The position numbers and the translations under genes are program-made. Source: Clostridiaceae bacterium (GTDB taxonomy: Bacteria > Bacillota > Clostridia > Saccharofermentanales > DTU023). From it: a stretch of DNA of 34,709 bases. Positions 22,603 through 27,520 of the stretch are shown piece by piece; the first letter of the stretch is position 1, and every line of letters starts with the position of its first letter. The stretch spans positions 1 through 34,709 of the forward strand of contig JAAYNE010000121.1 in NCBI GenBank assembly GCA_012521015.1, given 5' to 3'. The notes under the pieces were generated by a model. It saw nothing but the letters and a program-made list of their open reading frames with translations, ran no database searches and was not told the origin of the DNA.

Positions 22603-23640
22603 TTATTCAAAACGTTGAATTAGCGATAAGAAATCCCGCCGATAAATGATTTTAACATTAATTCCAGGATATAGTTCTTCCAGTTTTTTAAGTTTTTTTC
22701 GTTTGGCACTCACATACCTTTGATCCATCGTAGTTAACTCTAAATATAAATCAAACTTGGGTAAATAGAAATCCGGACTGAATGCCATGGTAACTCTGTT
22801 TTCTTCATCCCACTCAACCGGAAAAAATTTTGGTTCATAACGCCATTCAACTTGATATAGATTAAGCAATCTGGCAAATTCTTTTTCGGATTCATTTTTG
22901 AATTCAGGTATATCAGTACTTTGTAGAATAGCCTGCTCGCTATCACCTTGTTTTGCTAAATGACGATTGATTTCATAGTCCTCAATTAAGCTATTAACTA
23001 CACTTAAACAAGCATCTAAAGATAATTTATCCGTATTCAATATCAAATGAAAAGAGTCGAATTGATTGTCATCGGCTTGGAATAATGTGCTAACAAAGCG
23101 ACGATATTGACGATCAATTCTTTGGGTTAAATCACCAGATGATATATCGGCAATCTGAGTAGCAGGAATGAATTTTTCCATGAACTTTAATTCATGCAAA
23201 GAATCAATTGATGTAGAAAAATCTTTGTTCTTTTCCTTGTATTGCAAATAATTACGATATTGCTCCTGAGAGATTTCTATTCGTTGTTCACGGATTTCCA
23301 ATGGTGAAACGGTTCGTAAATGAATTGCTCTGGGATGATCTTTTAAAAAGTAATTAGCACCGCAACCAAGCAATATGGCATTATGATTTTTAGCCCAGTC
23401 ATGGATTGAACCTTCTAAATATGCTTTGAAATTCATTTGTTGATCTGTAGTAATTGGCTCAAAAAAATACTTAGCACTTACTTCAAGCATCTGTTTTTCA
23501 TGTTCACTGGCTATCGGCTTGAGAAATATTTCAATCATTTGATCAAAATCGATTAGAGTATATCCGCTTTTATTTGATAAACGTTCAGCGAATTCATCTC
23601 CAAAACTACCGGCTTCTCTGGAAATAGTTAATATGGGCAC
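22603..23640 (-). CDS. Cytidylate kinase-like domain fused to a PD-(D/E)XK nuclease-like domain
   Basis: A 345-residue protein starting at GTG (AGAGG upstream). The N-terminal ~200 residues resemble the cytidylate-kinase-like family: ILTISREAGSFGDEFAERLS replaces the usual P-loop-like GSGG motif, and ILLGCGANYFLKDHPRAIHLRTVSP follows. The C-terminal ~95 residues (about 250-345) form a separate domain with WRYEPKFFPVEWDEE, FSPDFYLPKFDLYLELT and KRKKLKKLEELYPGINVKII. That pattern is typical of PD-(D/E)XK nuclease-fold proteins (Asp in PDFYLP, Glu in LYLELT), although the usual Lys after Glu is Thr here. It is paired with an unusual HPRT homologue. Both domain assignments are from motifs only, and the role is unknown. 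Confidence 0.72.
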   Translation of the reverse strand: MPILTISREAGSFGDEFAERLSNKSGYTLIDFDQMIEIFLKPIASEHEKQMLEVSAKYFFEPITTDQQMNFKAYLEGSIHDWAKNHNAILLGCGANYFLKDHPRAIHLRTVSPLEIREQRIEISQEQYRNYLQYKEKNKDFSTSIDSLHELKFMEKFIPATQIADISSGDLTQRIDRQYRRFVSTLFQADDNQFDSFHLILNTDKLSLDACLSVVNSLIEDYEINRHLAKQGDSEQAILQSTDIPEFKNESEKEFARLLNLYQVEWRYEPKFFPVEWDEENRVTMAFSPDFYLPKFDLYLELTTMDQRYVSAKRKKLKKLEELYPGINVKIIYRRDFLSLIQRFE

Positions 23641-24781: not shown

Positions 24782-25729
24782 CTAGCTTTTTCTGCAAAAC
24801 AGCTTAAAAAATTTACGAAAATAAAACTTCAATTCTCGAAATATACTTTTAATGATATTGCCTAAATTGAATCTACGAGGAAAAAATTGAGCTTTCTTCT
24901 TAATATAAGCACGAATCAACATTGCAATTTCTTGAGTATGGACTTGAGTATTGTAATGCATCATATAATCTTCTGTATTAGGTGCGGCATAAAAAAAACG
25001 ATACCAAGCACCATATGCATCACCTAATCCGAATAAATGTCCGGCTTCATGTGCTGCAACTTGTTTCAAACTCTGTGTGCTGCGTAAATCATTGATCACA
25101 GCATAGCCGGGAAAATTTCGACTCCAATTGTAGCCAAAGCTTTCAATTTGCCCGGTGCGAAAAATTCCCCAGAACCTGCGAAAGAGTCCACTTGCAACAT
25201 GTGATGGTAAAAGTTTGGACTTTTTGACGAAGATAGGTATTGGTCTCGTTTTGCCTTTTAGTAATCGCTTTAAGAAAACAATTCTTGGATTTTGCTGACC
25301 GGATAAGATATCTTCATATAGTTTGACATGTAACGGTAATTTTGCCAGATGTTGTTCGGATAATTGATATTCTATATCTTTTGAAGCTTCACAACCGGGT
25401 AATTTTGTTAAATTTTGCTTAGATAGTTGATTTGACGTCTCTTTTAACAAGTTGTGATTATTATTGCGAGCGAGTGTTTTTGCTTGATGTTGTTTGACCG
25501 GACTTTGCCCTGTTTTTTGTAATAGGAAAAAATCTGAACATGCCTGACTGAGTTCCGGATTCATCGGGTAAAAACCGGACCAATTTTGTTCAATGCCCTT
25601 GATAACATAGTGTTTGTAGGAATGGTTGTGTGAAAAAATATTAAGTGCAAATTTATTAAAGGATACGTAAACTGTTAAGTGAAAGCCGCTATGCGGATCA
25701 TAATTTAGACGTAAAGGTGAACGGTTCAT
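24782..25729 (-). CDS. Putative metzincin-type zinc metalloprotease
   Basis: A 315-residue protein with one clear functional motif, AAHEAGHLFGLGD (about residues 225-237). This is HExxHxxGxxD, giving His227, Glu228, His231 and an Asp237 third ligand as in snapalysin-type metzincins. A likely Met-turn (DYMMHYN, about 254-260) follows. The rest matches nothing I recognise. Residues 100-112 and 121-133 are a near repeat (NQLSKQNLTKLPG, YQLSEQHLAKLPL). No signal peptide or membrane helix is visible, unusual for a protease of this class; the C-terminus is rich in Arg, Lys and Phe. The gene lies seven bases after the upstream membrane-protein gene and is presumably co-transcribed and functionally linked. 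Protease activity is inferred from the motif only. Confidence 0.65.
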   Translation of the reverse strand: MNRSPLRLNYDPHSGFHLTVYVSFNKFALNIFSHNHSYKHYVIKGIEQNWSGFYPMNPELSQACSDFFLLQKTGQSPVKQHQAKTLARNNNHNLLKETSNQLSKQNLTKLPGCEASKDIEYQLSEQHLAKLPLHVKLYEDILSGQQNPRIVFLKRLLKGKTRPIPIFVKKSKLLPSHVASGLFRRFWGIFRTGQIESFGYNWSRNFPGYAVINDLRSTQSLKQVAAHEAGHLFGLGDAYGAWYRFFYAAPNTEDYMMHYNTQVHTQEIAMLIRAYIKKKAQFFPRRFNLGNIIKSIFRELKFYFRKFFKLFCRKS

Positions 25730-25736
25730 AATCAGC

Positions 25737-26546
25737 TCATGGTTTATTTGCCTGAATATTGTTTTTCAGCCAAGATTTCAAGCTGATTATTTTAAATTTT
25801 CGAGCTAAACGTTTATACCACGGGAACAAAGAGATGTCCTGCGGATAAAACAGATGAGCATGACTCATATCGAGAAAAATCGGGTAAAGATAAGAAGTTT
25901 GCTCAGTACTGACATAGTTTACGATTCCGGCTCCGGCAGAGAGAATTTCTTCTTCGTTTTTCATATCTGTGATCAAAATCAGATTATTTTGGCTGACAGG
26001 CTTTTTCAGGTTTTCCGATTCGATAAACCTTAAAGTTTCCGACAGAATGTTATCAACAATCAAGACATTTAAAATAGGACGATAAAGTAAAAATATTCGA
26101 TGGTATTTACTCTGAAATTTATGATTAATGAAAGGAGTCTTTTTTTCAAAAATCAAACCTAAGCGATGCTTGGCAACTTGTTGGTAATTTTGTCGATCAA
26201 ACCAATCGGTGATCATTTGTACAATATTTCCTTGTCGTTTAATCTGACTCAGCAAAACAGTATCAAGTTTGTATTTTTCCACCTTAGCTAATTTTGCCAA
26301 ACTTTTGGGGTCGGCAGGGTTATAGGGGTGAATTACGTGATCAGCAATCATTGTGTTTATGCTACCTACACAAAATATAATATATAGAATTGCTAAACCG
26401 GCAAAGATTAGATTCAGCCATTTCATTGCGAGCAAAGGTTGTAAATGTTGAATATTGCTTCGAATCCATAATAGAGCAAATCCAAGCAATAAAAGAATAA
26501 AAATTTGGCTGATTATATTGCGGATTTTCCAATACTTCCGTTTCAC
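25737..26546 (-). CDS. Uncharacterised membrane protein upstream of the putative metalloprotease
   Basis: A 269-residue protein starting at GTG with AGGGGTG just upstream. Two hydrophobic helices near the N-terminus (about residues 13-28 and 45-65) form a hairpin, leaving about 200 hydrophilic residues after residue 70, probably in the cytoplasm. I recognise no domain. The soluble part alternates strands and helices (RIFLLYRPILNVLIVDNIL, NLILITDMKNEEEIL, YLYPIFLDMSHAHLFYPQD). It is the first gene of a two-gene unit with the metzincin-like protein, so it may anchor or deliver that protein. Confidence 0.7.
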   Translation of the reverse strand: MKRKYWKIRNIISQIFILLLLGFALLWIRSNIQHLQPLLAMKWLNLIFAGLAILYIIFCVGSINTMIADHVIHPYNPADPKSLAKLAKVEKYKLDTVLLSQIKRQGNIVQMITDWFDRQNYQQVAKHRLGLIFEKKTPFINHKFQSKYHRIFLLYRPILNVLIVDNILSETLRFIESENLKKPVSQNNLILITDMKNEEEILSAGAGIVNYVSTEQTSYLYPIFLDMSHAHLFYPQDISLFPWYKRLARKFKIISLKSWLKNNIQANKP

Positions 26547-26806
26547 ACTTCACCCCTAATTTTTTATAATTGTATCATTAAAAAAAACATTTTAAAACTT
26601 GAGATTTAATCCAGTGACTAAATTATGTTTCCTATTAAATTGTTCAACTAATGTAGATTTAGAAAATTCTAGAAATTCAATCGGTGGCAATTAAACAACT
26701 TTTACCACAATTTTTTAGTATAAGTTATAAGATTGTTACTTTAATTTCATCTTAAATAATTAAACGAAAAAGAGAGAATGGATTATCTGCAAGGAAAAAT
26801 ACTTTA

Positions 26807-27088
26807 TTAATTATTTTCTACAGAATAAGGATCCTTAACATCAGCCACTTCCAAAGAGTTTTTCCGGGATTTAAGAAAGGGTTGTTCAAAATCGTTCCCG
26901 ATTAAAGTGTCAAGACTGACTTTAAAATAAGAGCTGATTTTTTTGGCAACAGCAAGACTGGGAATTCTTTCAGCATTTTCATAATGTGAAACCAAACTGC
27001 GAGAAATGCCTAGTTCTTTTGCTAACATTAATTGAGTTAAATTATTTTGTTTGCGTAATTGTTTGAGATTATTTGAAAAATCTGTCAT
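26807..27088 (-). CDS. XRE family transcriptional regulator
   Basis: A 93-residue DNA-binding protein. The start at 27088 is preferred over a longer frame from 27163 because AGGTGG lies six bases before it. The helix-turn-helix is at about residues 7-60 (LKQLRKQNNLTQLMLAKELGISRSLVSHYENAERIPS). A short C-terminal tail carries no ligand domain. Its upstream region contains an inverted repeat overlapping a promoter, so autoregulation is likely. It diverges from a second XRE gene 246 bases away. Targets are unknown. Confidence 0.88.
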   Translation of the reverse strand: MTDFSNNLKQLRKQNNLTQLMLAKELGISRSLVSHYENAERIPSLAVAKKISSYFKVSLDTLIGNDFEQPFLKSRKNSLEVADVKDPYSVENN

Positions 27089-27114
27089 AAGACCACCTAA
27101 ATTAAAATGAAATA

Positions 27115-27149
27115 ATGTTACAATCAGCGACTGTTTCTTATTGTAACAT
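27115..27149 (-). promoter_or_regulatory. Operator-like inverted repeat overlapping an extended -10
   Basis: ATGTTACAAT (27115-27124) and ATTGTAACAT (27140-27149) are perfect 10-bp inverted arms 15 bases apart. The right arm, read on the minus strand, contains TGTTACAAT, an extended -10 (TGnTACAAT) for the XRE gene starting at 27088. A protein bound here would block that promoter. Confidence 0.65.
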
Positions 27150-27253
27150 ATTTTCAGAAACAAGTAGTTAGTTAATTACAAATTGGACAGAGTAAATTTT
27201 GACAAATTTAGGAAATCAAAAATTTAATTTGATTCAGTCTTTTTTATTTAATG

Positions 27254-27305: not shown

Positions 27306-27334
27306 AATCAATAATGATATTAAGGAGTAACAAG

Positions 27335-27520
27335 ATGCGTGATTGGTTAAAAGAACTACGATTAGTATCAGGCTATACTCAGACCGATATTGCCAATTCA
27401 TTGAGAATTTCACGTTCTTACTATACGCAAATTGAGTTGGGGAATAGAAATCCTTCTCCTAAAGTAGCAATTGAATTAGGTAAATTATTAGATTTTGAAT
27501 GGACTCGATTTTTTGAATGA
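27335..27520 (+). CDS. Small Cro-like XRE regulator
   Basis: A 61-residue protein that is little more than a helix-turn-helix (residues about 3-58: LKELRLVSGYTQTDIANSLRISRSYYTQIELGNRNPSPKVAIELGKLL). ATG 27335 is chosen because AAGGAG lies seven bases upstream. It diverges from the 93-residue XRE gene, and both upstream regions share ATGTTA half-sites. The pair resembles a small two-regulator switch, but no phage or conjugation genes lie nearby. Confidence 0.88.
   Translation: MRDWLKELRLVSGYTQTDIANSLRISRSYYTQIELGNRNPSPKVAIELGKLLDFEWTRFFE

What the first reader, a model, noticed from the sequence alone, without database searches (positions are those of the whole stretch)
24782..26546. Metzincin-type protein without export signal, paired with an unknown membrane protein
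HEAGHLFGLGD with a probable Met-turn predicts a zinc protease, but there is no signal peptide. The rest of the protein, and the co-transcribed two-helix membrane protein, match nothing I recognise. The pair could be an intracellular or membrane-delivered proteolytic system.
Basis: partly seen in the sequence, partly recalled or inferred. Interest (0 to 1): 0.55.

Follow-up and report, generated by a model that had tools for sequence, protein, structure and literature searches.

The report
Cytosolic relative of Rhs-borne metzincin domains
This is a conserved zinc-protease gene of an uncultured clostridial order whose closest relatives elsewhere are the C-terminal ends of exported Rhs proteins, but which here is a strongly basic, apparently intracellular protein that in some lineages travels with a two-helix membrane protein; it suggests that these bacteria keep such a protease domain inside the cell for a job of their own, not yet known.

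Summary
P1 (24782-25729, minus, 315 aa) has HEAGHLFGLGD and a Met-turn (M257), with no signal peptide and no room for one. P2 (25737-26546, minus, 269 aa) lies 7 nt upstream, with two transmembrane helices and a ~200-residue domain. "Matches nothing" needs revising: P1 is collinear with an unnamed C-terminal domain of clostridial Rhs and secreted proteins (sequence evidence). In its order P1 forms a single-copy clade (81 of 188 genomes). All 37 members checked keep HExxHxxGxxD, are strongly basic and lack an export signal; relatives outside the order are neutral to acidic. P2-P1 adjacency survives in 13 of 18 P1-bearing genomes of the family, across changing neighbourhoods, but is not obligate: P1 lies elsewhere in genus g3 and family f3, exists without P2 in family f2, and P2 persists without P1. 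P2 is the more stable gene. Best reading: a cytosolic, probably membrane-surface zinc endopeptidase with few native substrates, with P2 as lineage-specific dock or substrate. Activity, fold and interaction are unproven; AlphaFold with four close sequences failed (pLDDT 37.5, 41.5).

The parts
24782..25729 (-). P1: 315-aa putative cytosolic zinc endopeptidase (metzincin signature HExxHxxGxxD + Met-turn), net charge +26, calculated pI 10.0
25019..25051 (-). Codons for the zinc-binding helix HEAGHLFGLGD (residues 227-237)
   Evidence: sequence; invariant in alignment A1, present in all 37 order members checked
24959..24967 (-). Codons for the Met-turn YMM (residues 255-257), fixed spacing of 17 residues after the third ligand
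   Evidence: M257 invariant in A1
25139..25210 (-). Order-specific insertion LPSHVASGLFRRFWGIFRTGQIES (residues 174-197), in the order's P1 proteins but not in the relatives outside the order
24785..24883 (-). Basic C-terminal tail (residues 283-315, +9, amphipathic when drawn as a helix)
25737..26546 (-). P2: 269-aa membrane protein, two N-terminal transmembrane helices (about 10-28, 45-63), then a ~200-aa domain of unknown fold; charges weakly suggest both ends in the cytosol
26547..26600 (-). Leader of P2: Shine-Dalgarno AGGGGTGA before the GTG start and a promoter-like match (TTTAAA-16-TACAAT, TG before the second hexamer) at 26596-26569
   Evidence: promoter-like sites in this region are only somewhat above shuffles: 22 against 13.1, sd 3.7
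26807..27163 (-). XRE-type regulator upstream of P2 (neighbour in most genomes of this genus; not part of the pair elsewhere)
27314..27520 (+). Second, divergent XRE-type regulator

Best explanation
P1 is an active zinc endopeptidase of the metzincin type that works inside the cell, probably at an anionic surface (most likely the inner face of the cytoplasmic membrane, through its basic body and C-terminal tail), cutting one or a few of the cell's own proteins. It is a free-standing, single-copy, mostly vertically inherited form of a domain that elsewhere in Clostridia sits at the C-terminus of Rhs proteins and secreted proteins. P2 is a more stable, near-universal membrane protein of the same families; in several genera the two genes became translationally coupled, and there P2 most likely anchors P1, presents substrate to it, or is itself the substrate. 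Shown: the sequence signature and its conservation, homology to the Rhs-borne domain, absence of an export signal, basic charge, recurrent but not obligate linkage. Inferred: catalysis, membrane-surface location, P2 as partner.
For: HExxHxxGxxD in all 37 order members checked, with the Met at a fixed 17-residue spacing in all that are complete there. Best PDB profile hits are snapalysins, E=2.6e-4, over the active-site helix; Reprolysin_5 covers P1 194-262 including the Met-turn, E=7.5e-4, below its cut-off; Reprolysin_3 covers nearly its whole model on the relative L178, E=1.2e-3, below its cut-off. Collinear alignment over the whole domain with Rhs/secreted C-terminal domains, found by profile at E down to 6.5e-15, with Rhs_assc_core directly before it. 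No 19-residue segment above 1.22 mean hydropathy in order members. Net charge per residue: P1 median +0.063, above 99.6% of 486 neighbouring conserved genes; 11 relatives outside the order -0.063 to 0. The order clade is separated from the others with SH-aLRT 98. P2-P1 gap from -41 to +21 nt in 13 genomes, with upstream neighbours differing (XRE/ctsR in g1; tmcAL-like in G005; alanyl-tRNA-editing-like gene in g4; whiA-htrA in g5; racemase-like genes in g7). dN/dS 0.1-0.2.
Against: No structure: the AlphaFold models are unusable. No family model reaches its cut-off. Basic charge fits nucleic-acid binding as well as membrane binding. P1 has other close neighbours in other lineages (ribokinase-like gene in g3, a zinc-ribbon HD protein in f2), so adjacency to P2 may be partly incidental. 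P1 presence changes at least 7 times on the P2 tree, so it is dispensable.
Confidence: 0.5

Rival explanations
1. P1 is a toxin or effector that leaves the cell by an unrecognised route, with P2 as its membrane-bound immunity protein.
For: Homologous domain in Rhs polymorphic-toxin-like proteins; P2 is next to it and membrane-bound; immunity proteins can persist without toxin.
Against: No delivery domain; no Rhs core in any of 7 genomes of the genus; single copy and family-wise inheritance; none found in phages, plasmids or viral contigs; P2 is in every genome of family f1 (at least a fragment) and in no P1-bearing f2 genome; strong purifying selection, not hypervariability.
Confidence: 0.12
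2. P1 is a nucleic-acid-associated protease, working like Wss1/SPRTN on protein bound to DNA.
For: All order members are strongly basic; no export signal. In f2 it lies near dnaX-ybaB-recR-like genes.
Against: Coupled in several genera to a membrane protein; third ligand and Met-turn differ from the Wss1 type (own knowledge); no nucleic-acid-binding domain found; the f2 neighbourhood also holds a divIC-like gene.
Confidence: 0.15
3. P1 and P2 are functionally unrelated; their adjacency is inherited by descent within one family, and P1 acts alone.
For: Unlinked in g3 and f3, P1 without P2 in f2, P2 without P1 in g2 and g6; linkage needs only 3 changes on the P2 tree.
Against: The pair stayed together while its upstream neighbours changed, with overlapping or nearly touching genes in 13 genomes.
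Confidence: 0.3
4. P1 is catalytically dead and uses the zincin fold for binding only.
For: No activity data exist.
Against: Zinc ligands and the general-base Glu are invariant across deeply diverged members.
Confidence: 0.05

Closest known systems
C-terminal metallopeptidase-like domain of clostridial Rhs and secreted proteins (unnamed; L169, L171, L173, L178)
   Same: Collinear over the whole domain: N-terminal strand, GI..W..Y segment, NWS..PG strand, VAAHEFGHxLGLGDAY, Met-turn, D/EI.M..A helix, QFF
   Different: P1 is free-standing, has no export or Rhs part, is strongly basic, and carries an insertion (PSHVxSxxxRRxWGxF) and a basic C-terminal tail
Snapalysin (MEROPS M7)
   Same: HExxHxxGxxD with Asp as third ligand plus a Met-turn; best solved-structure match of the profile
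   Different: Snapalysin is secreted; Pfam M7 and NCBIfam snapalysin cut-offs are not reached
Mini-zincins, M94/DUF1025 (Acel_2062; PMC3890501)
   Same: HExxHxxGxxD and no signal peptide, presumed intracellular
   Different: M94 lacks a Met-turn, is ~110 aa and has a negative surface; P1 has the Met-turn, is basic, and PF06262 does not match
Listeria Mtz-Tim metzincin/TIMP-like pair (PMC8235301)
   Same: Metzincin signature, tandem partner gene, divergent XRE pair beside it
   Different: Mtz is Sec-secreted and Tim is a lipoprotein; P1 has no signal peptide and P2 is a two-helix membrane protein. Sequence homology was not tested
Tox-MPTase1-5 (PMC3482391)
   Same: Zincin domains at the end of Rhs toxins
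   Different: No Pfam Tox-MPTase model matches P1 or its Rhs relatives

Membership tests
Metzincins (clan MA(M)) | HExxHxxGxxH/D zinc-binding motif | tested here: met
   All 37 order members checked
Metzincins (clan MA(M)) | Met-turn C-terminal to the third ligand | tested here: met
   Met at fixed 17-residue spacing; sequence level only
Metzincins (clan MA(M)) | Zincin fold | tested here: inconclusive
   AlphaFold mean pLDDT 37.5 with 4 close rows; indirect support from partial profile matches
Metzincins (clan MA(M)) | Zinc-dependent peptidase activity | not testable with these tools
   needs protein
Snapalysin M7 | Family model at its curated cut-off | tested here: not met
   Pfam M7 best E 8e-4 among members, no family over cut-off for P1; NCBIfam snapalysin 12 bits against 300
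Snapalysin M7 | Secreted | tested here: not met
   no signal peptide, no hydrophobic segment
Rhs polymorphic toxin | C-terminal domain homologous to P1 | tested here: met
Rhs polymorphic toxin | Rhs core or other delivery domain | tested here: not met
   P1 is 315 aa, domain only; no Rhs core in the genus
Rhs polymorphic toxin | Cognate immunity gene adjacent | tested here: not met
   P1 without P2 in f2; unlinked in g3 and f3
Tox-MPTase1-5 | Pfam model match | tested here: not met
   none listed at E up to 1 for 20 members
Mini-zincin M94 (PF06262) | No Met-turn, ~110 aa, Pfam match | tested here: not met
   Met-turn present; no PF06262 match
Listeria Mtz-Tim | Signal peptides on both proteins | tested here: not met
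   P1 none; P2 has two transmembrane helices and no lipobox seen by eye

The most novel reading that the evidence does not exclude
An order of Clostridia keeps a metzincin domain of the kind otherwise found on Rhs and secreted proteins as an intracellular, membrane-surface regulatory protease, which in several genera works with a dedicated two-helix membrane protein that presents its substrate or is its substrate.
Probability: 0.3. Interest if true: 0.65.

Novelty: new variant of a known kind. Interest (0 to 1): 0.45.

Why it matters
Most bacterial metzincins known are exported (own knowledge; PMC8235301 says metzincins are commonly secreted or externally bound). A conserved clade without any export signal, sharing ancestry with domains carried by Rhs proteins, would be one protease domain used both on exported proteins and for an internal task, and would point to an uncharacterised branch of proteolysis in uncultured Clostridia. 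It also flags P2, a near-universal membrane protein of these families, and an Rhs C-terminal domain that no family library names.

Tried and rejected
Pfam, NCBIfam, PHROGs, PADLOC for P2: nothing credible (phrog_16606 E=0.008, unknown function). PDB profile with P2: chance hits to transmembrane helices only. Viral contigs, phages, plasmids: none. Idea that P2, the HD protein that follows P1 in f2 and the proteins that follow P1-like domains in Rhs loci are one family: rejected, they look unrelated. P2 in 291 genomes sampled across the class: only the window's own. Phylum-wide search with the wider profile: besides the window's own P1 only short matches around the active-site motif. A regular expression for the insertion was too strict (21 of 37); the alignment shows the insertion in the rest too. 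Two region requests and two family scans failed on coordinates and were repeated.

Full report
What is there. On the minus strand P2 (GTG 26546 to 25737, 269 aa) is followed after 7 nt by P1 (ATG 25729 to 24782, 315 aa). P1 has HEAGHLFGLGD (H227, E228, H231, D237) and a Met-turn YMM (M257). Shuffled P1 gives such a motif in 12 of 200,000 trials, and no gene outside the P1 family among 1,254 examined has it. The P1 frame is open for only 12 codons before the ATG, so a signal peptide cannot have been missed. P2 has two hydrophobic segments (10-28, 45-63) and a domain of about 200 residues; charges weakly suggest both ends inside. Both genes are under purifying selection.

Family and reach. P1 occurs in 81 of 188 genomes of its order, 13 of 30 genera, families f1, f2 and f3, essentially once per genome. 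The nearest relatives in the species collection are titled 'Clostridiaceae bacterium' MAGs. P2 occurs in 54 of 188 genomes, in f1 (38 of 38, one of them by a fragment only) and f3, never in f2 or f4, and in none of the other 290 genomes of a class sample. P1 was not found in phages, plasmids or viral contigs, nor P2 in viral contigs.

What P1 is. No curated family reaches its cut-off. A profile of the order's P1 proteins finds, elsewhere in the class, C-terminal domains of larger proteins. Four of these (L169, L171, L173, L177) have the Rhs-associated core directly before the domain (for L169 below the family's cut-off); L178 has a copper-amine-oxidase N-terminal-like domain, and L176 begins with a hydrophobic signal-like stretch. 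L177 has lost the full HExxHxxGxxD motif. L172 (366 aa) is a further free-standing relative outside the order; it is not basic. The closest solved structures by profile are snapalysins (E=2.6e-4, active-site helix only). The pattern strand - helix with W - strands - HExxHxxGxxD helix - Met-turn - helix is the order of elements in metzincins (inference, from general knowledge of the fold). The predicted structures were unusable, so the fold is not shown.

What is different about the order's version. All 37 members checked keep HExxHxxGxxD and none has a hydrophobic stretch of export-signal strength. They carry an insertion, PSHVxSxxxRRxWGxF(R/K), absent from the relatives outside the order, and a basic C-terminal tail. 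Net charge per residue has median +0.063, above 99.6% of 486 neighbouring conserved genes, while 11 relatives outside the order range from -0.063 to 0. P2 is basic too (median +0.056). The order's proteins and the others lie on opposite sides of a branch with SH-aLRT 98; that tree has no independent root, so which form came first is open. No genome of the window's genus has an Rhs core.

The pair. Of 18 f1 genomes with P1, 13 (genera g1, g4, g5, g7) have P2 immediately upstream, with gaps from -41 to +21 nt. Upstream neighbours differ: XRE regulators and ctsR-mcsA-mcsB in g1, a tmcAL-like gene in G005 of the same genus, an alanyl-tRNA-editing-type gene in g4, whiA-htrA-like genes in g5, racemase-like genes in g7 (these names are mine, read from the sequences, except where a family scan is cited). 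In g3 P1 instead overlaps or abuts a ribokinase-like gene and precedes thrS; in f3 it is elsewhere; in f2 it precedes a zinc-ribbon HD protein (24-290 nt, same strand, 14 of 14). P2 remains without P1 in g2, g6 and in G015 of g4, where P1 alone is missing from the same neighbourhood. On the P2 tree, P1 presence needs at least 7 changes and linkage 3. So P2 is the stable gene and P1 the optional one; the pair is a recurrent association, not a fixed system.

Mechanism proposed. P1 most likely cuts a small set of native proteins at the inner face of the membrane; P2, where coupled, docks it or is cut. Steps shown: signature, homology, charge, lack of export signal, linkage pattern. Steps inferred: activity, membrane surface, partnership. 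Nucleic-acid association is the main alternative for the basic charge, and simple lack of relation between P1 and P2 is the main alternative for the pair.

Known kinds. P1 works like a metzincin by signature, but membership rests on sequence alone. It fails the tests for snapalysin (cut-off, secretion), for mini-zincins (Met-turn present; PMC3890501), for Tox-MPTase1-5 (no model match; PMC3482391), for an Rhs toxin (no delivery part, no fixed immunity gene) and for the Listeria Mtz-Tim pair (no signal peptides; PMC8235301). Searches of the open literature for intracellular bacterial metzincins returned nothing closer than these.

Noticed in passing
window 26807-27163 (-) and 27314-27520 (+): Two divergent XRE-type regulators next to P2-P1 in most genomes of the genus, an arrangement that recalls the cI/cro-like switch beside the Listeria metzincin-TIMP pair; absent in G005, where P2-P1 persists.
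   Followed up: partly
window 25335-25382 and 25398-25445: Internal duplication in the P1 linker (QLSKQNLTKLP / QLSEQHLAKLP, 48 nt at 71% identity, 63 nt apart); the nearest relatives lack one copy, which explains most of the extra length of the window's P1.
   Followed up: yes
window 22603-23640 (-): 345-aa protein that starts like a cytidylate kinase and ends with a PDFYLP...YLELTTM...K stretch reminiscent of PD-(D/E)XK nucleases; conserved in all 7 genomes of the genus beside the pair.
   Followed up: no
L169, L171, L173, L177, L178: An Rhs/secreted C-terminal metzincin-like domain that no Pfam or NCBIfam model covers at cut-off; in L173, L175 and L178 it is followed by related exported proteins with repeats (cluster c81), and in L179/L180 by a membrane protein family (c82).
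   Followed up: partly
L149-L168 (family f2): P1 is usually followed by a zinc-ribbon plus HD-domain protein and lies near dnaX-ybaB-recR-like genes, an S4 protein and a divIC-like gene.
   Followed up: partly
L087, L090, L096 and others: P2's usual place is a core cluster hprK-murB-rapZ-whiA-(200-aa membrane protein MDYLEGFLIGPVWSDTEY)-htrA; that 200-aa membrane protein is also conserved and uncharacterised here.
   Followed up: no
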